A DNA stretch of 33,706 nucleotides from Lentimicrobiaceae bacterium (GTDB taxonomy: Bacteria; Bacteroidota; Bacteroidia; Bacteroidales; UBA4417), in contig JADLKF010000011.1 in the NCBI GenBank assembly GCA_015657475.1, forward strand, positions 1-33,706, given 5' to 3'. The notes beneath the pieces are model-generated. The model did no database searches. It saw only the letters and a program-made list of their open reading frames with translations, and was not told where the DNA came from. The position numbers and the translations under genes were made by a program. Below, in pieces: positions 2,482 to 33,410 of this stretch. Position 1 is the stretch's first letter. Each line of letters opens with the position of its first letter.

Positions 2482-4620
2482 ATGGAACACCCGACGGCAG
2501 CATTTGCCTATAACACTACACCATGCAGCAACGGTACAGTTCAGTTCATGGATCAGTCCACCGCCTTCCAGTCCACCGTTACCTCATGGCTATGGGAGTT
2601 TGAACCCTACCAGTACAGCACACTGCAGCATCCATCCTACACTTATTATAAGACGGACACCTGTTACTCAGTGAAACTGATCATCACCGACAGCCGAGGG
2701 TGCAGTGATACCGTCACTCAGCTGGTCTGCGTTCCCGCAGCATTCGCTGTGAGCTTTACTCAGCAAAACACCTGTGCCGGCAGCGCTGTACAGTTTACCT
2801 CGCAACTCGTGGCTCCGGGCAACGATATCATTAATTCGTACCAATGGAACTTCGGCGATCCCGCATCGGGCAGCACCAATAATTCAACTGCACAGAATCC
2901 GTCGCATGTGTTCAACCAGCCTGGATTCTACACGGTAACGCTCACTGCACTTGATATTTATGGTTGTTCGGCTACTTATATTCAGAATATTGTGATCAAT
3001 GCTCTGCCGGTCGCTGCATTCACCTATGTATCCGGCGTGTGCGACAGCACCATCACTTTCACCAGCACCAGTCTTGGTGTAGCCGCTCCTGTTGCTACCT
3101 ACACCTGGTCGTTTGGCGATGGAACGGTCCAGACCTTTGCAGCGCCTGTTAATACAGTTATCCATAAATACCCGGCCGGCGGTCAATACTCTGTCAGCCT
3201 GACTGTTACAGACGAAAACGGGTGCAGCCATTCGGTTACCGAAGAGGTAAGCCTCAACTCATGCCTGGTGGCTGCCATGATGATACCCGATACACTGATC
3301 TGCCAGAACTACACCATTACCTTCAGCGACCGCAGCTCAGGAGGTACAGGCATCAGTTCGTGGCAATGGACATGGGGCGACGGATCGGCTCCAACCAGTT
3401 ACACAACATTTACCCCGAGTGTTACCCACATTTATACTCAACCAGGACAGTTCTGGGTATCGCTCAAAGTCACCTCCATAGTCAACGGCAGTGTGATGTC
3501 CGATTCAACGGCAATCAGGATCAATGTCCTGGCTTCACCCCTGGCCGGATTTATCACCGACAAACAATGCTTCGGCGACAAGACCGCCTTCATGGATACC
3601 ACGAACAATAACGGTGCTCTCTGGGTGGATTACCAGTGGAACTTTGGCGACCCGCTGAGCCTTGATGACATATCGGAAGACAGGAATCCGACCTACACCT
3701 ATCACACTGTAGGACAGTTTGATGCAAGCCTTATTGTAACCAACCAGTACGGGTGCATTGATACGGCATCTGCACCGGTTACTATCCATGGTCTGCCCAA
3801 TGCTTCGTTTGACTACAGCGCTGCTTGCCAGAACCAGCCGACTTACTTCTTCGACCACTCCGATCCCAACATTGCACCGCTCACCCACTGGGGCTGGAGG
3901 ATTGACCAATCGCAACAAATCGGGTGGATGACCGGCTCAACTCCTTCCTTCACATTCGACGAAACCGGTAATTACCATGTCCTGCTCTCGGTAGCCGACA
4001 GCAACGGATGTATTGACACTGCCTCACGAAACATTTCAGTGTATCCTACTCCGGTGAGTGCATTCGGCCTCGAAAAAGACTTTGAAAACGTGCAGGGACA
4101 GGTACACTTTATCAACGGCTCACTCAACGCCGATCAATACTACTGGGATTTCGGCAACGGACAGACTTCGGCTGGTGAATCACCCGTGGTGCAGTATGAC
4201 AATGACGGCGATTACCTCGTACAACTGTTTGCATACAACCAGTATGGCTGTATCGACTCTACCAGCTTCCTCTACAGGATGATGTACACAGGCCTGTGGG
4301 TACCCAATGCCTTTGCGCCTTCAGGGCCAATTGAACAGACTCGAATCTGGAAACCTGTGGGTATAAACCTGGCTTACTACAGGGCTGAAATCTATGATCG
4401 CTGGGATGCCCTGATATGGTCATCCGAAGCCCTCGACGATAAAGGTGCGCCTGCCGAAGGATGGGATGGCACCTACAAAGAAGTGCCTTGCCAGCAGGGT
4501 AGCTACGTGTGGAAGATCACAGCTATTTTCCGTGATGGTAAGATATGGCGCAACAAGGATGTTGGCGATCACACTGATATGCCCGAACAAACCAGCGGTA
4601 CTATTACGCTGATCAGGTAG
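2482..4620 (+). CDS. PKD-repeat surface protein with type B (CHU_C) T9SS sorting domain, C-terminal part
   Basis: This is an open frame of 712 codons whose first ATG is not a real start, because the protein continues upstream in other frames. It holds seven PKD domains of about 85-90 residues, each with a W-x-F-G-D or similar turn and a conserved G-C near the last strand. The last ~110 residues form a gliding-motility-associated C-terminal domain: V-P-N-A-F-A-P at its start, Y-D-R-W in the middle, G-W-D-G-T and C-Q-Q-G-S-Y-V-W-K after it. In this family that domain directs export through the T9SS and attachment at the cell surface. The usual N-G-D-G-x-N-D after P-N-A-F is replaced by S-G-P-I-E-Q. 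PKD arrays generally act in adhesion or polysaccharide binding, but the ligand cannot be told here. With the broken part upstream, the protein has about 17 PKD domains. Confidence 0.88.
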   Translation: MEHPTAAFAYNTTPCSNGTVQFMDQSTAFQSTVTSWLWEFEPYQYSTLQHPSYTYYKTDTCYSVKLIITDSRGCSDTVTQLVCVPAAFAVSFTQQNTCAGSAVQFTSQLVAPGNDIINSYQWNFGDPASGSTNNSTAQNPSHVFNQPGFYTVTLTALDIYGCSATYIQNIVINALPVAAFTYVSGVCDSTITFTSTSLGVAAPVATYTWSFGDGTVQTFAAPVNTVIHKYPAGGQYSVSLTVTDENGCSHSVTEEVSLNSCLVAAMMIPDTLICQNYTITFSDRSSGGTGISSWQWTWGDGSAPTSYTTFTPSVTHIYTQPGQFWVSLKVTSIVNGSVMSDSTAIRINVLASPLAGFITDKQCFGDKTAFMDTTNNNGALWVDYQWNFGDPLSLDDISEDRNPTYTYHTVGQFDASLIVTNQYGCIDTASAPVTIHGLPNASFDYSAACQNQPTYFFDHSDPNIAPLTHWGWRIDQSQQIGWMTGSTPSFTFDETGNYHVLLSVADSNGCIDTASRNISVYPTPVSAFGLEKDFENVQGQVHFINGSLNADQYYWDFGNGQTSAGESPVVQYDNDGDYLVQLFAYNQYGCIDSTSFLYRMMYTGLWVPNAFAPSGPIEQTRIWKPVGINLAYYRAEIYDRWDALIWSSEALDDKGAPAEGWDGTYKEVPCQQGSYVWKITAIFRDGKIWRNKDVGDHTDMPEQTSGTITLIR

Positions 4621-10113: not shown

Positions 10114-11283
10114 CTATCTTTTTTTCTTCATTACTGCATCTACTGCTACTGACAAGCGCTCAATTACTTCTTCTCTCGGGCCGGTTGCATCCACTTCAAG
10201 GAGCTTGTTCTGTTTTCTGTATAGCTCCATGGTAGGTTTTGTTTTGTACTCATATTCTTCTAGGCGGTGAACGATAAGTTCTGTAGATTGATCATAAGGG
10301 CGCGCTTTCTCACTTTTACCACGTTTATCGAGGCGGCGGATCAGATCCAGCATTGGCACTCTGAGTTCAACTGCGCAAGATACACGCATGTTCATTCGTC
10401 TTAACAATCCGTCAAGGATATATGCCTGCAAAACCGTTCTCGGAAAGCCCTTGAAGATAAACCCGTTAACGTCATCGTGATGCTTCATCTCCTGTTCAAT
10501 AAGGGGAATTACAATCTCATCCGGGACGAGATCGCCCTGAGTCATCTTCTCTTTCACTTTCAATCCTATCTCAGTATTGTTACTCACCTCTTTCCTGAGC
10601 AGAGCACCGGTAGAGATATAGTAAAGGTTAAATTTCTGGGCGAGCAATTTCCCCTGTGTCCCTTTACCTGAACCCGGATGTCCCGAAAGCACCAGGTTGA
10701 ACCATTCCTTCTGAAGCGAAAGCTCTATCTGGGAATTAAGCCGTTCGAATATTTCAGGAATAGGGCCAACACCATCGATTGCATAGTATAGATTGCGCTC
10801 TTTATAGTATTCTTTTACCGGAAGTGTCTTGTTCTCATACTCAATCAGTCGCCGTTTGATTACTTCCTCGGTATCATCGGATCTGCCTGAGATCTTCCCT
10901 CTCTCGATAAGCCTGGTAATAAGTTCATCATTAGGAACTTCGAGGCTTAGCATGCACGATAACGAGGTGTTGAGTTTCAGCAATAACCCGTCGAGAATGT
11001 ATGCCTGCACGAAAGTGCGCGGAAATCCATCGAATAATATGCCGTTGCTGTCGGTGCTCGAAATGATCTTTTTTTCGATAAGTTCAACCATTATCTCATC
11101 CGAAACCAGTTCACCCCGCTGAATGATATCCTTCACACGGTTACCTAATTCAGACCCTTCGGCGATTTCCTGCCGCAGCAGGTCGCCGGTGGAGATATAA
11201 GCCAGGTTATATTTCTCGATGATGAGTTGTGACTGGGTTCCCTTGCCTGCACCCGGAGGACCGAAAAGCGCAATGTTAAGCAT
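10114..11283 (-). CDS. adk: tandem (two-domain) adenylate kinase
   Basis: The 389-residue protein is two complete adenylate kinase domains in one frame, about twice the usual ~190-215 residues. Domain 1 (1-190) has all core residues: P-loop G-P-P-G-A-G-K-G-T 8-16, S-T-G-D-L-L-R with Asp34, D-G-F-P-R-T with Asp85, a short zinc-free LID and G-R-S-D-D at 133-137. Domain 2 (from about 195) keeps the P-loop Lys207, the AMP-site arginines and the LID arginine. It has Ala227 and Lys278 where the two Mg-coordinating aspartates normally sit (Asp33 and Asp84 of the E. coli enzyme). Domain 1 is therefore expected to interconvert ATP + AMP and 2 ADP, while domain 2 looks weakened or regulatory. No frame irregularity is seen at the junction. 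The gene sits between hpt and obg. Confidence 0.95.
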   Translation of the reverse strand: MLNIALFGPPGAGKGTQSQLIIEKYNLAYISTGDLLRQEIAEGSELGNRVKDIIQRGELVSDEIMVELIEKKIISSTDSNGILFDGFPRTFVQAYILDGLLLKLNTSLSCMLSLEVPNDELITRLIERGKISGRSDDTEEVIKRRLIEYENKTLPVKEYYKERNLYYAIDGVGPIPEIFERLNSQIELSLQKEWFNLVLSGHPGSGKGTQGKLLAQKFNLYYISTGALLRKEVSNNTEIGLKVKEKMTQGDLVPDEIVIPLIEQEMKHHDDVNGFIFKGFPRTVLQAYILDGLLRRMNMRVSCAVELRVPMLDLIRRLDKRGKSEKARPYDQSTELIVHRLEEYEYKTKPTMELYRKQNKLLEVDATGPREEVIERLSVAVDAVMKKKR

Positions 11284-15279: not shown

Positions 15280-18276
15280 TCAGAAAACTTCTTCCTCATT
15301 TTCAGAGCTTAACTTCAGCACAGCGCCTTTATTGTGTTTGCCATCTATTTTAATAGTCAGTGGCCTGGGAAACTGAACGTGCCTTATAATATCGTCTTCG
15401 AACAATGCAGGCAGACTGTTAAGTGTTTCAAGATCAATAAATCCATCGTTCATAAACGGATTTATTGTAAAGTAACCAACCCGGAAAGATGTAAGATTCT
15501 GAAAAAAGTGAGTGCCCTGACTTGGATCAATCCTGTAATTTTCAAGCCCTGACTCAATAATAAGCCTTGCTGCTGATATCTGCGGCCACTTCACCGGGAT
15601 ACCCAACCATGGATCGGTGCTGCCCCACCGGCCCGGGCCAATCAGAATGTAATTGTTTTGTGAAGCCAGAAATTTGTCGTTTATCAGACCTATACGGTAT
15701 GCGATCTCGGGATTGCGGGCCGGGTCGAAAACCTCGGGTTTTATATAAACAATATCCGAGATGCCGGATATTAGCCCGTTCCCCAGTGCTGCATTTGAAT
15801 ATATCAGCGTGTCTTCCGGATTTACTTCTTCAAGGTTTACATCATTTGATTCCTTGCTTTCTACTATCGGTCTGATTTGCAGCAAGGTAAATGCTTTTGG
15901 TGTTCCTTTGGGCCGGTGCAGATCAACAGCAAATTCTATCTCGATAGGTTTACCCAGTTCGCGATGGCCCATATCAAGACAAGTCTGCAATATTTCGGCA
16001 AGCGGAAAAGAATTATGATTCAAAATATTGGCAAATGTCACTACCCGGCGACCGTCATAATAGGTTCCTTCACGAAGAACATGATTTTCAAAATCAAGTG
16101 TTGAAACCAGATCCCTGAAAGCCAGATCAGCCGATGCTTCTTCAATCTTCAATCTTTTCAAATTCATCCCATCATCAAGCGAAGGCCAAAAGCTATCAGG
16201 CTTAAGATCAAGAGCATAAAAATATTTCTGGGTTTCACGCAACGCCATTTCTGTATTCGAAAGCTGCAGTATTTTTTTTGGATATTTCGGTGAAAACCTC
16301 AATGATGTTCCCCCGTCAACGATGTATTTCCCTAAACCGATGGCGATGGATGCAATACCATCCTCACTTCTTTCAGGAGCAATCGGATAATAGTTGATAG
16401 AGCGGGCTACTCCCGAAAATGTAGGGAAAAAGGAATCATCAAAGTGTGACCCCACAACCTGCTGCAGCACGATAGCCATCTTCTCTTCGTCAATGAGGTT
16501 GCGCGTTGCCGCCATGTAAGCCTTGCTGTTATGAAAAAACACCGAGGCGTAGACACTTTTGATTGCATTGCTGAGTTGTTCCAGCATCATGCGTTCGTCA
16601 CCCGGTACACGGGGCACCATATATGTGGAATATATGCCGGCAAAAGGCTGATAATGTGAATCTTCCAGCAGACTCGAAGAACGGACAGCAATAGGTCTGC
16701 TGCTCACACTGATGAACTTTGCGAGGTCATCGTGCAGCCTGAAAGGCAGGCGCGCATTGATGAACTGGTTCAGTATTTCCTCGTCAGGCAGATCTGACAA
16801 TCCTATCTTGAAAAGGTCGTTATCCTCCATAAACTCGTCAAACACGTCGGTGCATAGCACAACGGTGTGGGGAATCGATATATTGACTCCGGGGAATTTA
16901 TCGAAGAGGCGGTTTCGTTTAATGATAGTATCGAGAAATGCCAGGCCGCGGGCTTTCCCACCAATTGAACCATCACCAATACGGGTAAATGTTACATACT
17001 CGTCAAAGCTGTCACGGTTGAATTCAGCGATTATTCCCCTTGCTTTATTCAGACGGTAACCTGCAATGGCTTCAAAAAGGAAGCGGCGAATTTCATCAAG
17101 GTCGGTGAAATCGCCCGGACGAACATCTTTAAAGAATTCAGCCAGTGGAAACAAAGCCCTGGCAAACAGCCATTTAGAAAGGTGATTACGGTATATATGG
17201 TACAACAGTGAGTCGTCAGGAACTTCGAAGATGCGCTGCTGCAAAGCTTTCAGGTCACCGGCTCGCATAATCTCTTCCTTGGTTTCGGGATCTACAAAAA
17301 CGAAATCACCAAACGCAAAGTACTCCATCATAAAGTGCCTTAACTCGAGCGAAAGCGTTTTCGAGTTCTTGTTGATAAAGCCGACATTCATTTCGTGAGC
17401 AACAGATGCAAACTTTTCGTCGGACGATTGCAACAGGAATGGAACAAACTCATCTTCGGCCCGGACATGCTTAAGCAGTTTGAAACCCGCTTCCGGATCA
17501 TCCTTACCACGACGGCGGTAGCTTATGTCGGAGATGATACCAAGCAGACTGTGTTTAAACTTCTCATAAAGCCCGATAGCCTGCTCATAATTTGTGGCCA
17601 GTAAAATTTTTGGCCGGCCGCGGTTACGTAACATCTGCTGGTGTTCGTTCAGTCCTTCGGTCATGAAGGATCGCGACTGGTTGAACACGATTTTATATAT
17701 GTTCGGTAAATAACTTGAGTAAAACCTCACTGAGTCTTCAACCAGCAGCACTACCTGCACGCCAACCTCGCGGGTGTCGTGCTCGGCATTCATCTTGTCC
17801 TCAATCAGTTTGATGATAGCCAACAGAAGATCGCTGTTGCCCAACCAGCTGAAAATATAGTCGATCGCACTCAGGTCTTCATGCGACACCTTGAGAGAGA
17901 CTTCGCGTGAAAAAGGTGTCAATACAACAATCGGGATATCAGGGTATTGACTTTTTATCTTTTTAGCCAGGTCGAATGTGTCGAGTTCTTCGAGGTTCAA
18001 CATGCAGATAACCAGGTCAATATTTTCGCTTTTCAGCGTTGTAAAAGCCTCTTTCTCCGAAGGAACCTGTATAAACTGAGGCGGATACCGCAAATTGAGT
18101 GATACATATTCATTGAAAATCTGCTCATCAATACGGCCATCACCCTCAAGGATAAATGCATCATAATTGCTCGCAATCAGTAGTACATGATAAATACGTT
18201 TCCTCATCAGTTTGATGAACGGCGTATCATCGAAATAATATTTCTGCGAAAGCTGGGCTAATTGTGATGGTTTCAT
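15280..18276 (-). CDS. receiver-domain/PPDK_N (PEP/pyruvate-binding) fusion protein
   Basis: The 998-residue protein joins two receiver-like domains (about 28-165 and 174-320) to the ATP-binding domain of PEP synthase/pyruvate phosphate dikinase (from about 430; G-S-I-G-G-K-A-R-G at 436-444, then A-V-R-S-S-S-L-L-E-D-S). The first receiver has Met in the phosphoacceptor region (V-I-C-M-L-N-L). The second keeps acidic residues after strand 1 (V-E-D-S) and Asp250 in I-I-S-D-I-S-Y. The phosphohistidine swivel and the PEP-binding barrel of true PEP synthase are absent, so it should not make PEP by itself. The ATG at 18276 is chosen over a TTG at 18297 because of the promoter at 18308-18338. It is the first gene of a minus-strand run. 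A signal-controlled phosphotransferase is plausible. Confidence 0.85.
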   Translation of the reverse strand: MKPSQLAQLSQKYYFDDTPFIKLMRKRIYHVLLIASNYDAFILEGDGRIDEQIFNEYVSLNLRYPPQFIQVPSEKEAFTTLKSENIDLVICMLNLEELDTFDLAKKIKSQYPDIPIVVLTPFSREVSLKVSHEDLSAIDYIFSWLGNSDLLLAIIKLIEDKMNAEHDTREVGVQVVLLVEDSVRFYSSYLPNIYKIVFNQSRSFMTEGLNEHQQMLRNRGRPKILLATNYEQAIGLYEKFKHSLLGIISDISYRRRGKDDPEAGFKLLKHVRAEDEFVPFLLQSSDEKFASVAHEMNVGFINKNSKTLSLELRHFMMEYFAFGDFVFVDPETKEEIMRAGDLKALQQRIFEVPDDSLLYHIYRNHLSKWLFARALFPLAEFFKDVRPGDFTDLDEIRRFLFEAIAGYRLNKARGIIAEFNRDSFDEYVTFTRIGDGSIGGKARGLAFLDTIIKRNRLFDKFPGVNISIPHTVVLCTDVFDEFMEDNDLFKIGLSDLPDEEILNQFINARLPFRLHDDLAKFISVSSRPIAVRSSSLLEDSHYQPFAGIYSTYMVPRVPGDERMMLEQLSNAIKSVYASVFFHNSKAYMAATRNLIDEEKMAIVLQQVVGSHFDDSFFPTFSGVARSINYYPIAPERSEDGIASIAIGLGKYIVDGGTSLRFSPKYPKKILQLSNTEMALRETQKYFYALDLKPDSFWPSLDDGMNLKRLKIEEASADLAFRDLVSTLDFENHVLREGTYYDGRRVVTFANILNHNSFPLAEILQTCLDMGHRELGKPIEIEFAVDLHRPKGTPKAFTLLQIRPIVESKESNDVNLEEVNPEDTLIYSNAALGNGLISGISDIVYIKPEVFDPARNPEIAYRIGLINDKFLASQNNYILIGPGRWGSTDPWLGIPVKWPQISAARLIIESGLENYRIDPSQGTHFFQNLTSFRVGYFTINPFMNDGFIDLETLNSLPALFEDDIIRHVQFPRPLTIKIDGKHNKGAVLKLSSENEEEVF

Positions 18277-18307
18277 GTGTATATAACCGATCTGCAACCG
18301 ACAGGCG

Positions 18308-21005: not shown

Positions 21006-24000
21006 TTATTTCACAATTACTTTTATTGTTGTACTTGTTCCATCGAACCTCTTAATCTGCAATGCATACATTCCCGGGGTATATCCACTGAGATCAAGCA
21101 TAATTCTCTTTTCTACTGTTTCCGGTGTGAGACTTATCATCACCTTACCTACCTGGTCGAGCAATGTTATTTTAGTAAACCCGATGGTGGATGATTCGAT
21201 GTTGAGGATAGACGAAACCGGATTGGGATAAACCCTCAATGATGGCTTGTTGTTATCGGGAACGCTTACTGTTGAAAGGAAGTTTGCCACATATTGTAAC
21301 GATTCGTAAACTTCGAATGAATAAACAGCATTCAGCGATACAATATTTCCGTTCAACGTCCAGTTGGCAAACCTGTAACCGGCATTTTCATGTGCCGTCA
21401 ATGTAGCCATTGAGCCGTAAGTATATGAACCTTCTCCATTTATATAGCCTGCATTATCCGGTGATACCAAAGCAGTTACCGCAAATACCTGAATAAAATT
21501 AGCAGTCAGTGTAATATTGTCACTCACAGTGAAAGTATAGCTCTGATTGTAGGAAACTACTTGTCCGTTCACTGACCAATCGCTGAAAGCCCATCCTTCA
21601 TTGGATGTAGCGGTTACAGTTACTTGTGATCCTGCTGTTGCTGAACCTCCCCCTGTCACAATACCTCCGTCGGCCGGATTGGCAATCACCAATATATTAT
21701 AGACCTGTACCTGTTGCATAAACTGTGCTTCAAGGTCACGATTCTCTAATGCGTTGAAGGAATAAGCCGCATTACCTGAAACCATTGACCCGTCTTCATA
21801 CCAGCCGGTGAAGTCCCACCCTGTATTCGCCGAAGCAACTACAGTTACGTTTGCATTATATGAATAAGTACCTCCGCCTGAAACACTTCCGCCATCGACA
21901 GGGCTGGCACTCACATTAATTGTGTATTGCAGAACGGCAAAGTTTGCTGTAAGATTCACACTGTTATTCGCTATAAATGAATAGGTTGCATCGGTGGAAA
22001 CCACATTACCGTTCACGGTCCAGTTTACAAATCCGTAACCTGTATTAGGTGTTGCAATAGCTGTCACCTGATCGCCAATCGTGTATGTACCGTCACCTGT
22101 AGTTGTCCCGCCTGACGAAGGGTTTGCTGTGGTTGAAACCGTAACCTGGTTCATGCTGAAATTGGCAACCAGGTCGCGATTGGCCGAAGCGGTAAAACTA
22201 TATGAAGGTTCTGAGGAAACTGGAGTCCCATTTTCGGTCCAGTTAAGGAAATTCCAGTTTGTACTGGGAGTAGCCACCACTGTAACCGTCTGGCCGATCA
22301 AATAATTCCCTCCACCGCTGGTGGTGCCGCCTGACACGGGGTTGGATACAGTAGTGATAGTATAACTCTGGCTTCCTCCATTTTGTATATTAACATCGTC
22401 AATATACCAATAATCGTATTGATACAGGTCACCGGTAACGACAAAAGCTATATAAGTTGTGGACGAATTGAGGTTCGAAGTCACAATTGTATTTACCTGA
22501 TATGGTCCTACCATTGTGTTTGAAGTAGTAGCAAGTGACCATGCTTCATCTGTCCATGTGGTTCCGTTGGAACTTGACTGAACTTTTAGTGTAGCACCCG
22601 GAGCCCAATCATCAAGCAAATAACGGAAACTCAGGTTTAGTTGAGTGATACCGGTCGTATTAAACGAAGGTGTGATCAGTCGGGTTGTACCGGGGTTGAT
22701 ATCCTGGAAAGTAGATTTCATTTCACAGGCTGTACCTCCGGCATTATTGGTAGCTGATGCAGACCAACTGTTAACGGTTCCTGTGCCCGAATACTGTGTA
22801 CTCCAGCAGGCGGGAAATAATTCACCGGTAAACGATTCACTGTAAGGCAGTGATGACCCGCCACATAAAGTGGTAGCATTTGTTGTTATTCCGTTTGAAT
22901 AGGTAAATGTCCCGTCGACCGACCATAATTTATAGTAATAGGTGGTCGCCGGGTTCAGGGCAGTGTGGTTAAAGGAAGTTCCGCTGCCTGCATATATTAC
23001 AATGCCTCCGCCGCTGATAGTATTGCCGGCAGAATATGATGTGCCATTTTGTGGAATACCAAATGTCGGAGTTGTATTATAAACCAGCATTACGTTATTG
23101 TTGGAGCTGTTTTTAGTCCACGAAAGATCTATTTGCGTTGTACTTACGGGTGTAGCTGAGAACATGGATGGATTTTGAACTGTACTCATTCCCACTGTAA
23201 ATGAAATTGTTGAACCGGCGGCTGTAATATTGTAAATGTTTAACCCTCCTGCAGAACCATCCTGCAGAAATGGTGCCGGGTTTGTACCATCGTTGATCGC
23301 TGTGCGACCTGAGCCTGCCGAAAAATAGGCTGAAGAAGGCGTGCCATTGGTTGTAGTCGTTCCATTTGGCCTGTAGATATATAGCTCATCAGGAGGGCCA
23401 TCAGCATTTCCGGTTAGCGACGGATCAATTCTGTAAACAATTAATCCTGAACCCGGAAGACTTCCTTCATAAGTACCGGTTGCTTTCCTGTATTCCACCA
23501 CATAGTATTCTGAATATGAATTAGGTGAGGCAATTTTATAGCAATTGTTGGTTGATGAAGTCAGAGGCTGCAGCGTATAAGTCCCTGATGTCGTGATTTC
23601 CGGAATGCTGGTAATCCATGATTGCTCTGCATATTTCCATTTCATATAGGCCGTCATGTGTCCTCCACCATACTCCATAAGGTCCCAACTTGCTGCTGGT
23701 GAAATATTCAGTCCACCATCATCATAATGATATAGGTCAGGAGCGCCAAGTGTATGGAATGTTTCATGACAAAGCGTGGTTACATCCACCTGCGTTTCGG
23801 GTTGAAAAGTATAATCCCAAACCTGTTTTCCATTAATGCTTACATTATATGAGTATAAAACCCAACGGTGTGCCCATAATAAACTTGCCCATGCACCATG
23901 GTCACCTCTGACAATAAAACACACATTATCAACATATCCATCATTGTCAGCATCAATATTAAGACCAGAAGGTACCGGTGAATTGGCATTGATCCAGTTT

Positions 24001-24695
24001 ATTGCATCGCGAAGCAGTCCATGCTCCCTCAACCTGCGTTCATTATCTGTACTGTACCCATTAGGATTAGTCGTGGCATTGTAAGGCTCAAAATAATTAC
24101 GATTATGTGAATCAGTATATGACAGGTTCGTTGTCATAGCACATGCGGGATAATGAGTTGAGCTGATGGTCAACTGATTGTAAGAAACTTCTGTGTAGTA
24201 TGACTTCAATGAAACGCCTGTTGTCAGGTTAAAAAGGTCATCATATGTTTGGCGGGTGGTTGAGAACTCCGCATCGTCGGCAAATTTTATATAGATCACG
24301 AGGTTATTCATTGTACCGGTATGCGGCGCCATCACTGAAGTGCTGTTATCTGAGAGATATTGGCTTCGCAGCCTTTCATACTCACCACGAGAAACTTTTG
24401 CCCACTTTCGGAGTCCAACAACCTCAGGATCAACTTGATTCACCCTGAATTCTGACGGAACCACAACTTCGTCCTGACGAATGCCGTAATAATAATAGCC
24501 GTCAGCTGCCTGAATTATTGTAAAACCGTTAGCATCGTGCAGCCAGTTGAAATACTCGTCGCCCGAAACAAAGCAATGGATCGTTGTACCATCAGGTTGC
24601 TGTACCTGATATGGCTGATTTCTGACCACTGAAGCATTCGAAAAAGTAAAAGCAACTAGCACAGCTGCTAGTAAAAGGAGTAGTCGTTTTTTCAT
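21006..24695 (-). CDS. secreted M6-family metalloprotease with InlB-type repeats and type A T9SS sorting domain
   Basis: The 1229-residue protein has a signal peptide (1 to about 21) and an M6-type propeptide region. The zinc motif H-E-T-F-H at 310-314 precedes G-A-P-D-L-Y-H-Y-D, as in immune-inhibitor-A-like peptidases. A fibronectin-III-like segment and a MAM/jelly-roll-like segment come next (residues about 500-770). Five divergent InlB-type B repeats (G-G-x-x-x-G-x-G, later N-W-T-x-N-G and A-N-F) follow. It ends in a Por-type sorting domain (R-V-Y-P-N-P, then G-M-Y-A-L-Q and a basic final strand). It should leave through the T9SS and act on extracellular or host/dead-cell proteins. The substrate is unknown. 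It is monocistronic. Confidence 0.93.
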   Translation of the reverse strand: MKKRLLLLLAAVLVAFTFSNASVVRNQPYQVQQPDGTTIHCFVSGDEYFNWLHDANGFTIIQAADGYYYYGIRQDEVVVPSEFRVNQVDPEVVGLRKWAKVSRGEYERLRSQYLSDNSTSVMAPHTGTMNNLVIYIKFADDAEFSTTRQTYDDLFNLTTGVSLKSYYTEVSYNQLTISSTHYPACAMTTNLSYTDSHNRNYFEPYNATTNPNGYSTDNERRLREHGLLRDAINWINANSPVPSGLNIDADNDGYVDNVCFIVRGDHGAWASLLWAHRWVLYSYNVSINGKQVWDYTFQPETQVDVTTLCHETFHTLGAPDLYHYDDGGLNISPAASWDLMEYGGGHMTAYMKWKYAEQSWITSIPEITTSGTYTLQPLTSSTNNCYKIASPNSYSEYYVVEYRKATGTYEGSLPGSGLIVYRIDPSLTGNADGPPDELYIYRPNGTTTTNGTPSSAYFSAGSGRTAINDGTNPAPFLQDGSAGGLNIYNITAAGSTISFTVGMSTVQNPSMFSATPVSTTQIDLSWTKNSSNNNVMLVYNTTPTFGIPQNGTSYSAGNTISGGGIVIYAGSGTSFNHTALNPATTYYYKLWSVDGTFTYSNGITTNATTLCGGSSLPYSESFTGELFPACWSTQYSGTGTVNSWSASATNNAGGTACEMKSTFQDINPGTTRLITPSFNTTGITQLNLSFRYLLDDWAPGATLKVQSSSNGTTWTDEAWSLATTSNTMVGPYQVNTIVTSNLNSSTTYIAFVVTGDLYQYDYWYIDDVNIQNGGSQSYTITTVSNPVSGGTTSGGGNYLIGQTVTVVATPSTNWNFLNWTENGTPVSSEPSYSFTASANRDLVANFSMNQVTVSTTANPSSGGTTTGDGTYTIGDQVTAIATPNTGYGFVNWTVNGNVVSTDATYSFIANNSVNLTANFAVLQYTINVSASPVDGGSVSGGGTYSYNANVTVVASANTGWDFTGWYEDGSMVSGNAAYSFNALENRDLEAQFMQQVQVYNILVIANPADGGIVTGGGSATAGSQVTVTATSNEGWAFSDWSVNGQVVSYNQSYTFTVSDNITLTANFIQVFAVTALVSPDNAGYINGEGSYTYGSMATLTAHENAGYRFANWTLNGNIVSLNAVYSFEVYESLQYVANFLSTVSVPDNNKPSLRVYPNPVSSILNIESSTIGFTKITLLDQVGKVMISLTPETVEKRIMLDLSGYTPGMYALQIKRFDGTSTTIKVIVK
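21285..22375 (-). repeat. five InlB-type B repeats within the M6 protease
   Basis: Five consecutive units of about 72-76 residues share the pattern G-G-x-x-x-G-x-G-x-Y, then V-T-V/A-x-A, G-W/Y-x-F-x-N/D-W, and A-N-F at the end. Their sequences have diverged, so the array is old compared with the SprB array at the other end of the window. Confidence 0.85.
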
Positions 24696-26514: not shown

Positions 26515-27963
26515 ATGGAAACCATTTCGAAAATCATTGAATACTCAAGCGAAATCTCCATTCTTGAGATCTCGTATTTGCTTGCTTCTGTGCTCTTTAT
26601 CCTCGGCTTGAAAAAACTCAGCCACCCGGCAACAGCACGCTCCGGAAACCTTTGGGCTGCTGCCGGTATGGCTGCCGCCATTCTTTTCACCATCCTTTTT
26701 CACAAGAAAGATGGTCAGCCGATCGGCAATATTCCCTGGATCCTTGTTGCGCTTGCAATTGGCTCTTTTATAGGATGGTATGCATCCAAGAAAGTAAAAA
26801 TGACAGCCATGCCGCAGATGGTCTCCATCTTCAACGGGATGGGTGGCGCCTGTGCTGCTTTGATCTCAATGATGGAATTCCCAAAAATGCAGAATATGCT
26901 GGCTGCTGAGGGGGCTTCGCACATGCTTGGCGGTGAAGGCATTGCAATCCTTCTGGGACTTATGATCGGAGGTGTGTCTTTTGCAGGAAGCATGATCGCT
27001 TTCGGTAAACTCGATGGCAGGATTGGCGACATAAAGCACCCGGTACTAAGGATCATAAACCTTACATTCCTGGTACTTCTCCTGGTAGCTCTTGTATTCA
27101 TCCTGTTCCTGAAACCTGAAGCCGGTAATAATTGGCCCATTTATCTTTTCGCTTTCGCAGCACTGGTTTATGGAGTTACATTTGTTATGCCTATTGGTGG
27201 CGCCGATATGCCGGTCGTTATTTCGCTGCTCAACTCGTTCACCGGGGTTGCTGCAGCCATGGGCGGGTTTCTTTATAACAACCAGGCCATGCTAACCGGT
27301 GGTATACTGGTTGGGTCATCCGGGACCATTCTTACCATCCTTATGTGCAATGCCATGAACCGTTCACTGATGAATGTAATCATCGGTGCGTTTGGAGTTG
27401 CAGGCGCCGGCGGAACTGAAGCTGCTGATAAAACTGTTAAAGAAATCTCACTGAGTGATGCAGCAGTTCTGCTCAGCTACTCGCAGAAAGTTTATATCGT
27501 TCCCGGATATGGCCTTGCTGTTGCTCAGGCACAACACTTATGTCACGAACTTGATAATTTACTGGCTTCTAAAGGTGTGGAAGTAAAATATGCCATTCAT
27601 CCGGTTGCAGGTCGCATGCCCGGACATATGAATGTATTGCTGGCCGAAGCTGATGTGCCTTATGAAAAGCTGGTTGAAATGGAAGACGCCAACAACGAAA
27701 TGGCCAATACTGATGTGGTCATCGTGATTGGTGCCAACGATGTTGTAAACCCTGCTGCTGAAGATGATCCATCAAGCCCGATTTATGGTATGCCCATCAT
27801 CAAGGCGCTCGACGCACGCAACATCATTGTGATGAAACGCAGTATGGCTGCAGGTTATGCCGCTATTCCGAACAACCTTTTCTATCATCAGAAAAACCGT
27901 ATGTTGTTTGGCGACGCCAAAGCTACCCTGCAGAAACTTGTTGCTGAAATCAAGAGTTTGTAG
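26515..27963 (+). CDS. pntB: NAD(P) transhydrogenase subunit beta
   Basis: The 482-residue protein has a membrane half of about eight or nine helices (1 to about 290). The NADP-binding domain III follows, with V-P-G-Y-G-L-A-V-A-Q-A-Q-H at the start of the nucleotide fold and later G-A-N-D-V-V-N-P-A-A. It completes the proton-pumping transhydrogenase with the two genes before it. Its start has a strong Shine-Dalgarno-like AGGGAGG (26501-26507), rare in this window, which may set subunit stoichiometry. A terminator follows at once. Confidence 0.96.
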   Translation: METISKIIEYSSEISILEISYLLASVLFILGLKKLSHPATARSGNLWAAAGMAAAILFTILFHKKDGQPIGNIPWILVALAIGSFIGWYASKKVKMTAMPQMVSIFNGMGGACAALISMMEFPKMQNMLAAEGASHMLGGEGIAILLGLMIGGVSFAGSMIAFGKLDGRIGDIKHPVLRIINLTFLVLLLVALVFILFLKPEAGNNWPIYLFAFAALVYGVTFVMPIGGADMPVVISLLNSFTGVAAAMGGFLYNNQAMLTGGILVGSSGTILTILMCNAMNRSLMNVIIGAFGVAGAGGTEAADKTVKEISLSDAAVLLSYSQKVYIVPGYGLAVAQAQHLCHELDNLLASKGVEVKYAIHPVAGRMPGHMNVLLAEADVPYEKLVEMEDANNEMANTDVVIVIGANDVVNPAAEDDPSSPIYGMPIIKALDARNIIVMKRSMAAGYAAIPNNLFYHQKNRMLFGDAKATLQKLVAEIKSL

Positions 27964-27984
27964 GATTTTATTCTGAAAAATTTG

Positions 27985-28017
27985 ACCGGCGGTTTGAACT
28001 AACTGCCGGTTTTTTTA
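27985..28017 (+). terminator. rho-independent terminator of the transhydrogenase operon
   Basis: ACCGGCGGTT (27985-27994) pairs with AACTGCCGGT (28001-28010) with one G-U pair and a 6-base loop. A run of seven T follows from 28010. It overlaps the promoter of the next gene. Confidence 0.82.
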
Positions 28018-28023
28018 TATTTG
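27993..28023 (+). promoter_or_regulatory. perfect-consensus promoter of the SprA-like gene, overlapping a terminator
   Basis: TTTG (27993-27996), a 19-base spacer and TATATTTG (28016-28023) match the consensus exactly. The -33 element lies in the left arm and loop of the upstream terminator, and the -7 box begins in its T tract. The ATG at 28044 is 20 bases downstream. Confidence 0.65.
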
Positions 28024-28043: not shown

Positions 28044-29084
28044 ATGAAATTTTATCATTTAACACTTCTTCTGGCAATAAACATTTTATTTATGTTATCC
28101 TGTAAAAAAGATCCTTCGGGAAATCAACCGCCAGAACCGGAAGCAAATATTTTATCGTTACAAAATCCACTGTTATGGAAACATTCGACAGTCCCGCTAT
28201 TGTTTCCTGAATCAGAATTGATCAATAATGTTTCCAGTGGATTCAATCGGGCAAAGATTTCCTGGTATTGTATTGATCCACTGTTTTATAACAAAAACCT
28301 GGGATTAAGGCCAGTCAATATCTCAAATGATGATATATCTGACAATGATTGCCGCATTATTTGGGAAAACGAACTATTCAATTCAAAAATGAGTCCGGTT
28401 AGTTCTCCAATGCAATTATCAGTAATTAACCTGAACTTTTACCCTGATGAAAAAGGGCCCTGGAATTTCGATTTATTATCGAATTCGGTTTCTGGTGGAA
28501 TCCAGTCGAATGGTAAACTCAAAAATCCTGAATCCAGATGGGGAGGCATCATGAGAGCCATTGAAAATTCAGAGTTCAAAATTAAATATCTCGATTTCTG
28601 GATTATGGATCCATTTACCAAGAATCCGGAGCTAAGTGGATTTCTCTACATTAACCTCGGAGATATAAGCGAAGACATCTTAAATGACAACCTTCTATCG
28701 TCAGAGATTAATGGAACAGGCGAAGTGATTGAAACTGCATGGGGGAAAGTAAAACCGGCACAGATGGTTTATAATTTCCCGGCTTCAAATCCTGAATTAT
28801 ATGATACCGGTCTGGATGAACTGCCTGATGTGGACGAATTGAAGTATTTTGCCAATTATCTTGAAGGTATTCAGTCAAATTGCTCAGTCGATGTTTTCGC
28901 CAAGGTTGCTCAAGACCCTTCCAATGATGATTACCACTATTTTTTAGGCAGTGACTTTGATGAACTGAACTACAAAGTATGTGACCGGTATAAAAACTAT
29001 AATGGCAGGAATCGAACTCAATTCCTGCAAATAATGAATTGGCAAACACTATTTCCAGCCGAATTCCTGACAATGAAGATTTAA
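28044..29084 (+). CDS. stand-alone SprA-like lipoprotein, N-terminal frame
   Basis: The protein starts with a lipoprotein signal (lipobox M-L-S-C, Cys20). The mature sequence matches the SprA family, the large outer-membrane channel of the T9SS (Sov in Porphyromonas). Matching blocks are RAKISWYCIDPLFY at 69-82, WGGIMRAI at 166-173, LYINLGDISEDIL from 201, and then T-A-W-G-K-V, D-T-G-L-D-E-L and Y-K-N-Y-N-G. Family resemblance ends at about 29006, where one C appears lost. The last 26 codons of this frame are unlike SprA, and the match resumes in the next frame (29039-29410). Joined, the product is about 455 residues, against roughly 2400 for full SprA, so most barrel strands cannot be present. 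It follows a consensus promoter and precedes a SprB-repeat adhesin gene. Confidence 0.85.
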   Translation: MKFYHLTLLLAINILFMLSCKKDPSGNQPPEPEANILSLQNPLLWKHSTVPLLFPESELINNVSSGFNRAKISWYCIDPLFYNKNLGLRPVNISNDDISDNDCRIIWENELFNSKMSPVSSPMQLSVINLNFYPDEKGPWNFDLLSNSVSGGIQSNGKLKNPESRWGGIMRAIENSEFKIKYLDFWIMDPFTKNPELSGFLYINLGDISEDILNDNLLSSEINGTGEVIETAWGKVKPAQMVYNFPASNPELYDTGLDELPDVDELKYFANYLEGIQSNCSVDVFAKVAQDPSNDDYHYFLGSDFDELNYKVCDRYKNYNGRNRTQFLQIMNWQTLFPAEFLTMKI

Positions 29085-29410
29085 ATAAGAATGGTATACT
29101 CGATATTAAGAACGACTATTTTGAATATAAGATTTCAATTAACAAGAATGACTTCCTGATCGGGACAAACTATATTGTTGATATGTTTTCTGCCTTTACT
29201 CGACTGCAAAACGGAGAAGATATCAGGACTGACTATTACCATTTCCGAATACCTTTATCAGATTTTAAAACATCATATGGCAATCCGAATCTATCAGTGA
29301 ATCCAACGTTCATTAGGCTATTTGTTACCGGATTTGCTAATCCAATAGTATTGAGGTTTATTAACCTGGAACTCTCCGAGGAGCCTGTTGATTATTCTCA
29401 ATTTCAGTAA
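29039..29410 (+). CDS. stand-alone SprA-like lipoprotein, C-terminal frame
   Basis: This frame continues the SprA-like gene after the single-base loss near 29006. Read from there it gives Q-E-S-N-S, then I-P-D-N-E-D-L-N-K-N-G, Y-F-E-Y-K-I-S-I, F-R-I-P-L, and F-I-R-L-F-V-T-G-F then V-L-R-F-I-N-L-E-L. These are in the same order as the equivalent part of SprA, where a repeat of this module ends in G-E-W-R. The TTG at 29039 is not a believable start, as the match begins earlier. The stop at 29408-29410 follows the end of the module cleanly, suggesting a natural end rather than truncation. Confidence in a single original gene is high; whether the frameshift exists in the cell is open. Confidence 0.8.
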   Translation: MANTISSRIPDNEDLNKNGILDIKNDYFEYKISINKNDFLIGTNYIVDMFSAFTRLQNGEDIRTDYYHFRIPLSDFKTSYGNPNLSVNPTFIRLFVTGFANPIVLRFINLELSEEPVDYSQFQ

Positions 29411-29544
29411 TCATACTTTCTTACATAACGTGAATCCGTTGTGGCTGATATGCCCAACATAATTTTTATATGGATTTTGATCTCCGCAAATATTTACCGG
29501 CAGTCATGCAGTGCTGAATTCCTGTTTACAAAGTAATTATCTTC

Positions 29545-30948
29545 GTGCGCAAAAAAATAAAACCAGTGGCTGAAAAAAAGATATCTATACTATTGATATT
29601 AATTTTCAACATTGTATTTTGTGGAATTCTTACATCACAAAATATCGTTGTAAGCAGTTACCGTAATGATGCCATTTCGGGTGGTGATCCCCGTGATGAA
29701 TGGACTGAATTATTAGTAATTGATGACAATGTTGATCTGAGAAACTACACGCTGAGGGATAATAATAGCACTCAAACAGCCTGGCAAACACCCATTACCT
29801 TTAATAATATCGCTTTCTGGAATAATATGCGGGCTGGTACTATCATCATAGTATGGCACAGGGTAGTTGGTTCTAATTCAGTGACTCACCCTATGGATAT
29901 CAATAAATCAGATGGCTACATCGAAGTTCATGCGAATGATCCGGCATATTTTACCGGCGGAGATTTTGGAACCGCTCCATCATTTGCAGGTTCAACCCTG
30001 AATATATCGAATGGTGGTGATATCATTCAACTTAGAAATCCTTCGGGTACCCACATTCATGCTTTGGCGCACCGTGCCACCGTGGGTGCTGATTTTACTG
30101 CATTACCCTCTCCAAAGCTCAATCATCAGCAAAACTTAGCTTCTCAAAAAGCAGTGGCTGTTTTTGTTTGTCCCGGCACCAACCTCCAGGAATATGGCTG
30201 GAACAGTCCGCAAAACGGGACGACCTATACTGACACCTCCAGCCTGCAGGTTTCAAAAGGCCTCCCCAACCAATGTTCTGCCAGTTCAACGGCTAACTCT
30301 GACTACTGGCGCAGCCTTCGCCAGCCTCTATGGACAACGCCTGCCATGTTTGGATCATTTACTGCTCCCTCAACAATCAGTCTTGACTGGACATCTGCCA
30401 TCGATCCAAATCCCGGTGATGGCACCCAGGGATATATTGTTCTGCGCAACCTTGTAAATTCATTTACAGCACCAACTGATGGCCATACTTATGCCACCGG
30501 TAATACGATAGGCACCAGTGTGGTTGTGGCGGTCATTCCTTCGTCGCAAACACTCACCTATACTGATAGTTACACCCTTGCCTGCGGCGAAACAATGTAC
30601 TACCGCATTTATCCCTATCGCTACGGTACCGACGAAATCAACGGCAACGACTACCATGTTGCCCGTGGCAGGGCATACAATGAAACAAATTTCGCTGCAG
30701 CAAGCGTAAGCCGGGCTGCCGGACCTGTTATCAGCAATGTCTTACCCACCAGTCCCTCATGCGGATTGAGCAACGGCTCAATATATGTCTTTGCAAACGG
30801 AGGTACCGGAATACTTCAATATTCCATTGATAACGGCGCTACCTGGTTTCAAAATGGCGGCGTTTTCAGTAACCTTGGCCCGGAAGTTATTATATATATG
30901 TTAAGGACGCTTCTGACTGCCAGACTGCATATGGTTTCAATCCGGTGA
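29545..30948 (+). CDS. lamin-tail/SprB-repeat T9SS adhesin, N-terminal frame
   Basis: The first half of a large surface protein has a signal peptide (basic K-K, then I-S-I-L-L-I-L-I-F-N-I-V-F). A lamin-tail-like domain follows (D-E-W-T-E-L-L-V-I-D-D at about 51-61 with D-L-R-N-Y-T-L-R-D). Next come a fibronectin-III-like part (Y-I-V-L-R-N, M-Y-Y-R-I-Y-P-Y) and the first SprB repeat from 30757. The repeat is cut at 30881, where one C seems missing from a C run, so the last ~23 codons here are out of frame. The true product continues in the other frame. Two GTG starts are possible, 29545 and 29566. The latter is favoured by a TATCTTCG box that ends at 29545, but no convincing -33 element supports it. 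It starts 134 bases after the SprA-like gene. Confidence 0.85.
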   Translation: MRKKIKPVAEKKISILLILIFNIVFCGILTSQNIVVSSYRNDAISGGDPRDEWTELLVIDDNVDLRNYTLRDNNSTQTAWQTPITFNNIAFWNNMRAGTIIIVWHRVVGSNSVTHPMDINKSDGYIEVHANDPAYFTGGDFGTAPSFAGSTLNISNGGDIIQLRNPSGTHIHALAHRATVGADFTALPSPKLNHQQNLASQKAVAVFVCPGTNLQEYGWNSPQNGTTYTDTSSLQVSKGLPNQCSASSTANSDYWRSLRQPLWTTPAMFGSFTAPSTISLDWTSAIDPNPGDGTQGYIVLRNLVNSFTAPTDGHTYATGNTIGTSVVVAVIPSSQTLTYTDSYTLACGETMYYRIYPYRYGTDEINGNDYHVARGRAYNETNFAAASVSRAAGPVISNVLPTSPSCGLSNGSIYVFANGGTGILQYSIDNGATWFQNGGVFSNLGPEVIIYMLRTLLTARLHMVSIR

Positions 30949-32940
30949 TGCTTAATGCTTCGTCTGCCGCAACCATCAATTCGGTTACCCATACCGATGC
31001 AACCTGCGGCAACAGCGACGGTACCATTACCATTACTGCGAGCGGTGGCACCCCGCCTCTACAGTACTCCGTTAACAATGGCGCCACGTGGCAGGCGAAT
31101 CCTCTTTTCACTAACCTGGCAGCAGGTAACTATTATATTTATGTTGAAGACAACCTTAGCTGTCAGACCACCTATTCCTCCAACCCTGAGGTTATCAGCA
31201 ATACAGGTGGTGCGTCGATCGATACGGTAATTTCTACCAATTCAACCTGCGGCAACAGCGACGGCACAATTACCATTACAGCAGTGGGTGGTGCTCCACC
31301 GCTACACTACTCCATTAACAATGGCGCCACATGGCAGGCGAATCCTCTTTTCACTAACCTGGCGGCAGGTAACTATTATATTTATGTTGAAGACAACCTT
31401 GGCTGTCAGACCGCCTATACCTACAACCCTCAGGTTATCGGCAATACAGGAGGCGCGTCGATCGACACAGTCATTTCTACTAATTCGACCTGCAGCAACA
31501 GCAACGGTACCATTACTATTACAGCGGCCGGTGGCGCTCCACCTATCCAGTATTCCATTGACAATGGCGCCACCTGGCAAACGAATTCTCTGTTCACTAA
31601 CCTGGTAGCAAGCAGCTATTATATTTTTGTTGAAGACGACAATGGCTGTCAGACAGCCTATACCTACAACCCTCAGGTTATCGGCAATACAGGCGGCGCG
31701 TCGGTCGACACAGTCATGGTTACCAATACAACCTGCGGGATGAGCAATGGTTCCATTACCATTGATGCTGCAAACGGCACTCCGCCATTGCAATACTCCA
31801 TCAACGGCGGTGCGGATTACTACCTGACCAATATTTTCACCGGCCTGGCACAGGGCAATTACATGGTGATGGTAAGCGATGCCAATAACTGCGCCAGTGC
31901 CTATGCATCGAATCCAGCGGTAGTTTCGAATATTTCCGGAGCTGCTATTGATTCGGTAAACGCAATTTCGTCAACCTGCGGAAACAGCAACGGTAGTATT
32001 ATCATTTATGCTTCAGGAGGAACATATCCGTTAAGCTATTCAGTTGATGACGGGCTGACATGGAGTAATGATTCGGCTGCCTATAACAGCTTGCCTGCCG
32101 GGAACTATAAAGTTGTGATACAGGATAATAACAACTGCTTAACATACTGGCCGTCAAATCCTGTGGCTGTGAGCAATACCGGTGGCGCAGCCATTGATAC
32201 GGTGATGGTTACTGATGCAACCTGCGGCAGCGACGGCGCTATCAACATTGTAGCTACCGGCGGTACAGCTCCTTTGAGTTACTCCATTGATAACGGCGTA
32301 ACCTGGAATAACTCACCACAGTTCCTTAACCTTTCACCCGGTAATTACACTGTTTTAACCTCTGATGCTAACAACTGCCAGGTAGCTTATGCCTTTAACA
32401 TTTTGACAATCAATAGTTTGTCGGGATCATACATCAGCAGCATAATGGTACGCGATGAAACCTGCAACCTGTCAAACGGAGAAATCACCCTGATAACAAC
32501 CGGCAGTCCACCACCAATTCAGTACTCAATCGACGGCGGAAATACCTGGCAGGATTCAGCGCATTTTACCAGCCTTGTTGCAGCTTCGTACAATGCGGCT
32601 ATCATGGGACTAAACAACTGCCTGACACCGTACCCATACAACCCGGTGAATGTTAAAAACCAGGCCGCACCCTCGCTATTAGCTGCAGCCACCGATGCCA
32701 CCTGCAACGAAGATAACGGTTTAATTGAAGTTACCACTTCGGGCGGCAAACAGCCTCTCCGCTTTACATTAGATGATGGATTAACCTGGCAGGACTCGGC
32801 AATGTTTCACAATCTGGCGACAGGCACTTATAATATTGCAGTTTCCGATTCAAACAATTGCATCGGTTACTTTCAGAACAATCCGTTGGAAATCAAACGG
32901 ATACCTATGGCTGATTTATCTCTGTCGCAAGCGGGTACCT
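30757..32940 (+). repeat. nine SprB-type repeats, first units nearly identical in DNA
   Basis: The conserved A-C-C-T-G-C codon pair recurs at 31002, 31245, 31488, 31731, 31974, 32220, 32460 and 32700. The period is 243 bases, then 246, 240 and 240. The first unit starts at 30757. Units starting at 31002, 31245 and 31488 are very similar at base level, with exact runs of more than 20 bases. The later units have diverged. Confidence 0.9.
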
Positions 32941-33410
32941 TGTGTGCAGGGCAGGAATGGATCCTTTCACCCGGCACTGGTTATACCTCCTACTTTTGGC
33001 AGGATGGTTCATCACAGCCATCATTCAAAGCGACTGATGAAGGTTTGTACTGGGTCACAGCAACAGATACAAATGGTTGTTTATCAAGCGATTCTGTGTT
33101 GATTGTGAAATGCGCTGACTTGTTTGGGATACCAACAGCTTTTTCGCCAGATCTTGACGGGAAGAATGAAATTTTCCGTGTGATAGCATTCCATCCTGAA
33201 AAAATACTCGAATTCAGGATGTACATTTTTGACCGCTGGGGGCAATTGATCTTTGAAACCAATTCTCTGTTGGGTTACTGGGATGGAAGATTTAAAGGAC
33301 ATCCCTGTGATGCCGGAGTATACAGTTACCTGATAGAATTCCGGGCTGATAACAGTTACCAGTCGGACCAGAAGAGCCCTGTTCGGGGAATGGTAACAAT
33401 TGTCAGATAA
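30945..33410 (+). CDS. SprB-repeat T9SS adhesin with type B sorting domain, C-terminal frame
   Basis: This frame is open from about 30883 and continues the protein begun at 29545. It holds eight more SprB-type repeats of 80-82 residues (pattern T-C-G-N-S-x-G-x-I-T-I, G-G-x-x-P-L-x-Y-S-I-x-N-G-x-T-W, L-x-x-G-x-Y, D-x-N-x-C), then an Ig-like segment (C-A-G-Q-E-W and W-Q-D-G). The last ~95 residues are a CHU_C domain (I-P-T-A-F-S-P-D-L-D-G-K-N-E-I-F, then F-D-R-W-G, W-D-G and A-G-V-Y-S-Y). The type B sorting domain sends it through the T9SS to the surface. SprB repeats occur in gliding adhesins. No gliding locus other than the SprA-like gene is near. Confidence 0.9.
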   Translation: MMLNASSAATINSVTHTDATCGNSDGTITITASGGTPPLQYSVNNGATWQANPLFTNLAAGNYYIYVEDNLSCQTTYSSNPEVISNTGGASIDTVISTNSTCGNSDGTITITAVGGAPPLHYSINNGATWQANPLFTNLAAGNYYIYVEDNLGCQTAYTYNPQVIGNTGGASIDTVISTNSTCSNSNGTITITAAGGAPPIQYSIDNGATWQTNSLFTNLVASSYYIFVEDDNGCQTAYTYNPQVIGNTGGASVDTVMVTNTTCGMSNGSITIDAANGTPPLQYSINGGADYYLTNIFTGLAQGNYMVMVSDANNCASAYASNPAVVSNISGAAIDSVNAISSTCGNSNGSIIIYASGGTYPLSYSVDDGLTWSNDSAAYNSLPAGNYKVVIQDNNNCLTYWPSNPVAVSNTGGAAIDTVMVTDATCGSDGAINIVATGGTAPLSYSIDNGVTWNNSPQFLNLSPGNYTVLTSDANNCQVAYAFNILTINSLSGSYISSIMVRDETCNLSNGEITLITTGSPPPIQYSIDGGNTWQDSAHFTSLVAASYNAAIMGLNNCLTPYPYNPVNVKNQAAPSLLAAATDATCNEDNGLIEVTTSGGKQPLRFTLDDGLTWQDSAMFHNLATGTYNIAVSDSNNCIGYFQNNPLEIKRIPMADLSLSQAGTLCAGQEWILSPGTGYTSYFWQDGSSQPSFKATDEGLYWVTATDTNGCLSSDSVLIVKCADLFGIPTAFSPDLDGKNEIFRVIAFHPEKILEFRMYIFDRWGQLIFETNSLLGYWDGRFKGHPCDAGVYSYLIEFRADNSYQSDQKSPVRGMVTIVR

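What the first reader, a model, noticed from the sequence alone, without database searches (positions are those of the whole stretch)
28044..33410. Stand-alone SprA module as a lipoprotein, directly upstream of a SprB-repeat adhesin
SprA is normally a ~2400-residue outer-membrane channel. Here about 455 residues of one SprA module, with its own lipobox, stand alone between a consensus promoter and a T9SS adhesin gene built of SprB repeats. The module ends cleanly. This could be a dedicated surface lipoprotein that docks or displays the adhesin, or that interacts with the real SprA. The pair is my best candidate for an undescribed system. Pairing is inferred from adjacency only.
Basis: partly seen in the sequence, partly recalled or inferred. 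Interest (0 to 1): 0.78.

Follow-up and report, generated by a model that had tools for sequence, protein, structure and literature searches.

The report
Free-standing secretion-gate domain, made as lipoprotein
A bacterium carries, besides the full gene for its giant protein-export gate (SprA), a separate small gene for just one soluble domain of that gate fitted with a lipid-anchor signal; a few distant relatives carry the same domain with other export tags, so it looks like a real but rare and unstudied spin-off, with no consistent tie to the neighbouring adhesin gene.

Summary
Window 28044-29410 encodes one SprA slice (F. johnsoniae SprA residues ~870-1258) behind a lipoprotein signal peptide. 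It is split by a one-base frame break near 29003. A SprB-repeat/type B CTD adhesin follows, itself frame-broken. The genome has a separate sprA on another contig. Five further free-standing copies of the same slice were found in four other genomes out of about 790. One is an intact 453-aa lipoprotein in the same genus. Three are secreted proteins ending in a T9SS type A sorting domain. One runs off a contig end and keeps an extra SprA piece with the sequence between excised. The four intact copies match nearly the same SprA coordinates, and codon-position statistics show constraint on both sides of the break. The window's break is more likely a sequence error than decay, because other genes in this assembly, sprA included, are also broken. 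The adhesin pairing is not supported: only one of the five other copies lies near an adhesin, separated by three genes. Best reading: a barrel-less sprA duplicate whose product sits on the outer membrane, probably acting on T9SS cargo or carriers or as a repurposed binding domain. Location and partners are inferred; the structure prediction failed.

The parts
27984..28011 (+). terminator-like hairpin after pntB (NAD(P) transhydrogenase beta subunit), separating the gene from its upstream neighbour
   Evidence: consensus scan; pntB PF02233 E=1.8e-176
27993..28023 (+). Bacteroidota-type promoter-like site TTTG-N19-TATATTTG
   Evidence: pattern search: 3 in window vs 1.05 expected, so weak evidence on its own
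28044..28103 (+). lipoprotein signal peptide with lipobox MLSC, lipidated Cys20 predicted
   Evidence: read directly from the translation; same arrangement in the intact relative L075 (SCKKEP)
28044..29084 (+). 5' piece of the stand-alone SprA module gene (346-aa ORF; true coding frame up to about 29003)
   Evidence: TIGR04189 E=1.2e-71, model 772-1066/2319
29000..29012 (+). frame break (one-base change of length); intact relatives have no break here
29006..29410 (+). 3' piece of the same gene in another frame, ending with a stop just after the last conserved strand of the module
   Evidence: PF14349 E=7.5e-23; 99% match of the query's 3' part; codon-position constraint
29545..30948 (+). 5' piece of the neighbouring adhesin (signal peptide, lamin-tail-like region below cut-off, first SprB repeat below cut-off)
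30945..33410 (+). 3' piece of the adhesin: SprB repeats and CHU_C / type B T9SS sorting domain; neighbour only, not shown to belong to the module
   Evidence: PF13573 E=7.6e-57, PF13585 E=9.1e-14; TIGR04131 E=5.9e-12

Best explanation
The gene is a barrel-less descendant of sprA: one soluble module (equivalent to F. johnsoniae SprA ~870-1258) cut out at its domain borders and given its own export tag. Shown: homology, slice borders, lipobox, a separate sprA in the same genome, and further free-standing copies with a lipobox or a T9SS type A C-terminal domain. Inferred: the product ends up on the outer membrane, most plausibly the outside, because the relatives with a T9SS sorting domain should be sent there and SprA's substrate-contacting cap is there. 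There it would work as an accessory that keeps the module's binding surface, touching T9SS cargo or carrier proteins (or a surface ligand) without forming a channel. The frame break in this assembly is most likely a sequence error rather than gene death.
For: Full SprA is separate (C26). Free-standing copies: G007 intact 453-aa lipoprotein; G080 and G184 568 aa and G402 527 aa, with signal peptide + module + Por_Secre_tail; G184 second copy at a contig end. Matches to TIGR04189 in the four intact copies all begin at model position 769-775 and end at 1188-1219 of 2319. SprA-conserved residues are 71-93% retained. Codon-position differences 39/30/59% and 40/31/60% on either side of the break show protein-level constraint on both pieces. 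The G184 second copy keeps a SprA piece that lies ~100 aa upstream of the module in SprA, with the intervening sequence deleted. The module region maps to SprA 870-1258 in solved translocons. The sorting domain of cargo binds PorV loops and the SprA cap (PMC10994853). Sequence-error reading: Ns elsewhere in contigs C8 and C26, sprA itself interrupted, and a PKD gene at 1-4620 in several frames.
Against: No binding partner is known. That residues 870-1258 are the extracellular cap is inferred, not checked on coordinates. The AlphaFold model failed (pLDDT 34). The lipoprotein lacks the published minimal surface-export signal. The copies are rare and patchy, absent from 14 of 16 genomes of the genus, so they are not a core T9SS part. 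Several residues invariant in SprA are lost in the free copies (e.g. the N-T of EDxNxDNTL), which could mean loss of a translocon contact.
Confidence: 0.45

Rival explanations
1. Repurposed domain: the module was released from SprA and now serves as a surface binding protein (ion-, glycan- or protein-binding beta domain) with no remaining role in T9SS.
For: Faster divergence than SprA: the two same-genus lipoproteins are 51% identical while SprA modules of that genus are 61-84% identical. SprA-specific residues are lost while the core is kept, and the loop reads D-x-N-x-N-G-x-x-D, calcium-loop-like, in the lipoproteins. Neighbours are unrelated to T9SS in most loci.
Against: No ligand is known; most SprA-conserved residues are retained.
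Confidence: 0.3
2. Decaying gene: in this genome the copy is a pseudogene killed by a real frameshift.
For: The reading frame is broken, and the adjacent adhesin is broken as well.
Against: Both pieces still show coding constraint. Four of five other copies are open throughout and the fifth is open up to its contig end. The genome's own sprA and other long genes are broken too, and Ns are scattered in the contigs, pointing to sequence errors.
Confidence: 0.17
3. One reading: a dedicated lipoprotein that docks or displays the neighbouring SprB-repeat adhesin.
For: Same strand, 134 bp apart, no terminator-like site on this strand found between them. About 13 CHU_C matches per 4.4 Mb make direct adjacency uncommon by chance. 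One other locus has an adhesin within ~2.4 kb.
Against: Adhesin adjacency is absent in four of five other loci, including the closest relative. SprB is anchored by SprF, a PorP-like barrel (PMC7463736; also the abstract of PMC9143113). The single other locus has three genes in between and its genome holds 49 CHU_C matches.
Confidence: 0.06
4. Competitor or decoy: the free module lowers T9SS activity by occupying PorV or cargo sorting domains outside the translocon.
For: In SprA the cap contributes to sorting-domain binding inside the translocon (PMC10994853), and the free copies keep most conserved residues.
Against: Nothing here shows binding. The contact surface in the translocon is mainly hydrophobic and plastic, poorly conserved in the cargo, and comes partly from the PorV loops.
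Confidence: 0.1

Closest known systems
SprA/Sov T9SS outer-membrane translocon (TIGR04189, PF14349; PDB 6h3i, 6h3j, 8gl6)
   Same: The whole protein after the signal peptide is one SprA slice, ~40% identical to the genome's own SprA over ~400 residues.
   Different: No barrel strands, ~450 instead of ~2400 residues, own lipobox; cannot be a translocon. It nevertheless passes the SprA equivalog cut-off of 200 bits, so automatic annotation would probably name it SprA.
T9SS type A cargo proteins (Por_Secre_tail, PF18962/TIGR04183)
   Same: Relatives in G080, G184 and G402 have signal peptide + module + type A sorting domain.
   Different: The window's protein and its same-genus relative have a lipobox and no sorting domain.
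SprF/PorP-type anchors of type B adhesins
   Different: No sequence relation; no PorP/SprF gene next to the window adhesin; adjacency not conserved.
T9SS accessory lipoproteins (SprE/PorW, GldK, PorE)
   Same: Outer-membrane lipoproteins of the same pathway.
   Different: No match between them was seen; those are periplasmic core or adaptor parts (PMC7463736), this is a rare accessory.

Membership tests
SprA/Sov translocon | sequence match above the family cut-off | tested here: met
   TIGR04189 241.6 bits for the 5' piece, cut-off 200
SprA/Sov translocon | full ~2400-residue protein with the transmembrane barrel | tested here: not met
   only model positions ~772-1190 of 2319 are present; ~456 aa
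SprA/Sov translocon | the genome's single translocon gene | tested here: not met
   the full-length SprA locus is on contig C26
Surface-exposed Bacteroidota lipoprotein | signal peptide with lipobox | tested here: met
   MLSC at residues 17-20, read from sequence
Surface-exposed Bacteroidota lipoprotein | export signal K-(D/E)2 or Q-A-(D/E)2 just after the cysteine | tested here: not met
   C-KKDPS (window) and C-KKEPA (L075) have one acidic residue; the signal differs between species, so exposure stays open
T9SS type A cargo | C-terminal sorting domain | tested here: not met
   absent in the window protein and L075; present in G080, G184 and G402 copies
Dedicated adhesin-partner system | conserved adjacency to a SprB/CHU_C gene | tested here: not met
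   direct adjacency in the window only; 1 of 5 other loci within ~2.4 kb
SprA extracellular cap domain | same fold and position as SprA 870-1258 in the cryo-EM structure | tested here: inconclusive
   sequence maps there; model failed; coordinates not available

The most novel reading that the evidence does not exclude
Bacteria have more than once released the soluble module of the T9SS gate as a separate surface protein, tagged either by lipid or by the T9SS sorting signal itself (a piece of the gate exported through the gate), and this free module acts on cargo or carriers outside the translocon.
Probability: 0.2. Interest if true: 0.72.

Novelty: new variant of a known kind. Interest (0 to 1): 0.5.

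Why it matters
It would show that a soluble module of the 36-strand SprA channel folds and has value without the barrel, giving an ordinary-sized protein with which to test what this part of the translocon binds. It also warns that the SprA equivalog model (TIGR04189) accepts ~450-residue proteins that cannot be translocons, so 'sprA' counts from automatic annotation can be inflated.

Tried and rejected
Structure prediction of L075 with the two window pieces as alignment: pLDDT 34, useless; genome-search loci were not submitted because the tool's stated list does not include them. Fold search was therefore not run. Programmed frameshifting: the -1 frame carries a stop just before the break and there is no suitable slippery run at the break; the same-genus relative needs no shift. 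Remnant of a local full-length sprA: rejected, since the upstream neighbour is pntB ending at 27963 and sprA is on C26. Plasmid or phage carriage: phages no match, plasmids only one match, annotated sprA, in Parabacteroides. Rfam: no match in the window. Number of origins: the 65-row tree puts the G080/G184 copies inside their own family's SprA and the two lipoproteins elsewhere, but constrained trees are not rejected (lipoproteins with their genus's SprA p-AU 0.88; four short copies together p-AU 0.72), so two origins are favoured and not proven. Literature: no held paper on short or stand-alone SprA proteins.

Full report
Observation. The window is G000:C8:1-33706 of a 4.41-Mb, 26-contig assembly, 97% complete. 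ORF 28044-29084 encodes a signal peptide with lipobox (MLSC|KKD) followed by sequence that matches SprA; the remaining ~135 residues are in another frame, 29006-29410. The read-through product is ~456 aa. It matches PF14349 and TIGR04189 far beyond chance, is ~40% identical to the SprA of the same genome on contig C26, and aligns to residues 870-1258 of the solved F. johnsoniae SprA (done with the intact relative). The following adhesin (29545-33410) has SprB repeats and a type B sorting domain and is also split between two frames.

Is the break real? The 3' piece is as constrained as the 5' piece: differences from the same-genus relative by codon position are 39/30/59% and 40/31/60%. Elsewhere in this assembly the contigs carry scattered Ns; sprA on C26 is interrupted at an N followed by a stop; and the PKD-repeat gene at the window's start lies in several frames. 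The break is therefore more likely a sequence error, or a very recent event, than an old pseudogene. This is an inference; reads would settle it.

Relatives. A search of 149 relatives found full-length SprA nearly everywhere and short copies in two genomes. Searches of 393 genomes of the order, 395 of the class, the genus (16), and the families of two hits (3 and 10) followed. In about 790 distinct genomes there are six stand-alone copies in five genomes: the window; G007 (L075, JAIFMH010000345.1, an intact 453-aa lipoprotein, 49% identical in alignment A2); G080 (568 aa); G184 (568 aa, plus a second copy running off a contig end); and G402 (527 aa). Limits: only the best 3-4 candidates per genome were scored in the two large searches, and match lists were cut, so weak short copies could be missed; genomes with two or more matches were followed up. 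The G080, G184 and G402 copies carry a signal peptide and a type A T9SS sorting domain (the G080 domain is weak: 23.9 bits against Pfam's cut-off of 27, but over NCBIfam's cut-off of 23). The four intact copies match TIGR04189 from model position 769-775 to 1188-1219 of 2319, so nearly the same slice was kept in all. The second G184 copy also keeps a SprA hairpin-like piece that lies about 100 residues upstream of the module in SprA, with the sequence between deleted. This is what a copy of sprA that lost its barrel strands would look like.

History. In a 65-row tree the G080/G184 copies nest inside the SprA of their own family with strong support, while the two lipoproteins form a separate, long-branched clade. 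Tests that force the lipoproteins to group with their genus's SprA, or four short copies together, are not rejected, and the former has the higher likelihood. I conclude that two or more origins are likely but not proven. The free copies keep 71-93% of the residues that are at least 93% conserved in SprA. What they lose is not random-looking: the N-T of the EDxNxDNTL loop and part of the segment around F..R..YQD differ in most or all of the copies that cover them. Divergence is faster than in SprA (51% identity between the two lipoproteins against 61-84% among SprA modules of the genus).

Neighbours. L075 sits between an acyltransferase-like gene and a dGTPase-like gene, read from sequence. 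The G184 first copy lies between phosphoglucomutase-like and membrane glycosyltransferase-like genes, read from sequence. The G080 copy is near secreted proteins and a ChaN protein. The G402 copy is between trmD-like and phosphatase-like genes. The second G184 copy is ~2.4 kb from a SprB-repeat type B adhesin, with PorP/SprF, GNAT and methyltransferase genes between (the sorting domain of that adhesin scores just under its NCBIfam cut-off and over Pfam's). CHU_C matches number 13 in the window's genome and 49 in G184, so direct adjacency in the window is unusual by chance, but it was picked after the fact and is not conserved. The pairing claim is therefore not supported.

Mechanism. In the translocon, the cargo sorting domain binds PorV loops and the SprA cavity including its cap (PMC10994853). 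The barrel is capped on the cell surface, and SprA's N terminus is periplasmic. I infer, without coordinates, that the large soluble module 870-1258 belongs to the cap. The relatives' T9SS sorting domains imply delivery to the outside. For the lipoprotein form surface exposure is open, because C-KKDPS does not contain K-(D/E)2 (PMC5080379), though the signal varies between species. The most likely role is an accessory surface protein that keeps the module's binding surface. Alternatives are a repurposed binding domain, a decoy of T9SS, or a dying gene here.

Novelty. No held paper describes stand-alone SprA modules. They are a new variant of a known family: they look like part of SprA, are not translocons, and would probably be misnamed SprA by the present model.

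Noticed in passing
G000:C26, locus L074:1873-7813 (-): The genome's own full-length sprA is interrupted in the assembly by an ambiguous base followed by a stop, and has several other Ns; a sign of base-level errors in this assembly.
   Followed up: partly
L098:1-8000 (G184:C166): SprB-repeat type B adhesin, PorP/SprF, GNAT, methyltransferase and a second stand-alone SprA module on one strand; the module keeps an extra SprA piece with the sequence between removed, a fossil of how such copies arise.
   Followed up: partly
window 1-4620: PKD-repeat surface protein gene lying in several frames, apparently one gene broken by more than one frame change.
   Followed up: partly
window 10114-11283 (-): 389-aa protein with two adenylate kinase matches (PF00406, two stretches), a possible tandem fusion next to an Obg-like GTPase gene.
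   Followed up: no
window 15280-18297 (-) and L073:6271-9744 (-): 1005-aa protein with PEP-synthase/PPDK-type ATP-binding and receiver-like domains; a similar-looking 1157-aa gene lies just downstream of the window (similarity judged by eye).
   Followed up: no
window 21006-24695 (-): 1229-aa secreted protein with five divergent InlB B-type repeats and a T9SS type A sorting domain.
   Followed up: no
NCBIfam TIGR04189: The SprA 'equivalog' cut-off (200 bits) is passed by ~450-570-aa proteins that cover only model positions ~770-1190 of 2319; automatic annotation will probably call them SprA.
   Followed up: yes
plasmid NZ_OY725768.1:102721-103974: A gene annotated sprA lies on a 388-kb record listed as a Parabacteroides distasonis plasmid; unusual place for a core T9SS gene, or a mislabelled chromosome piece.
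   Followed up: no
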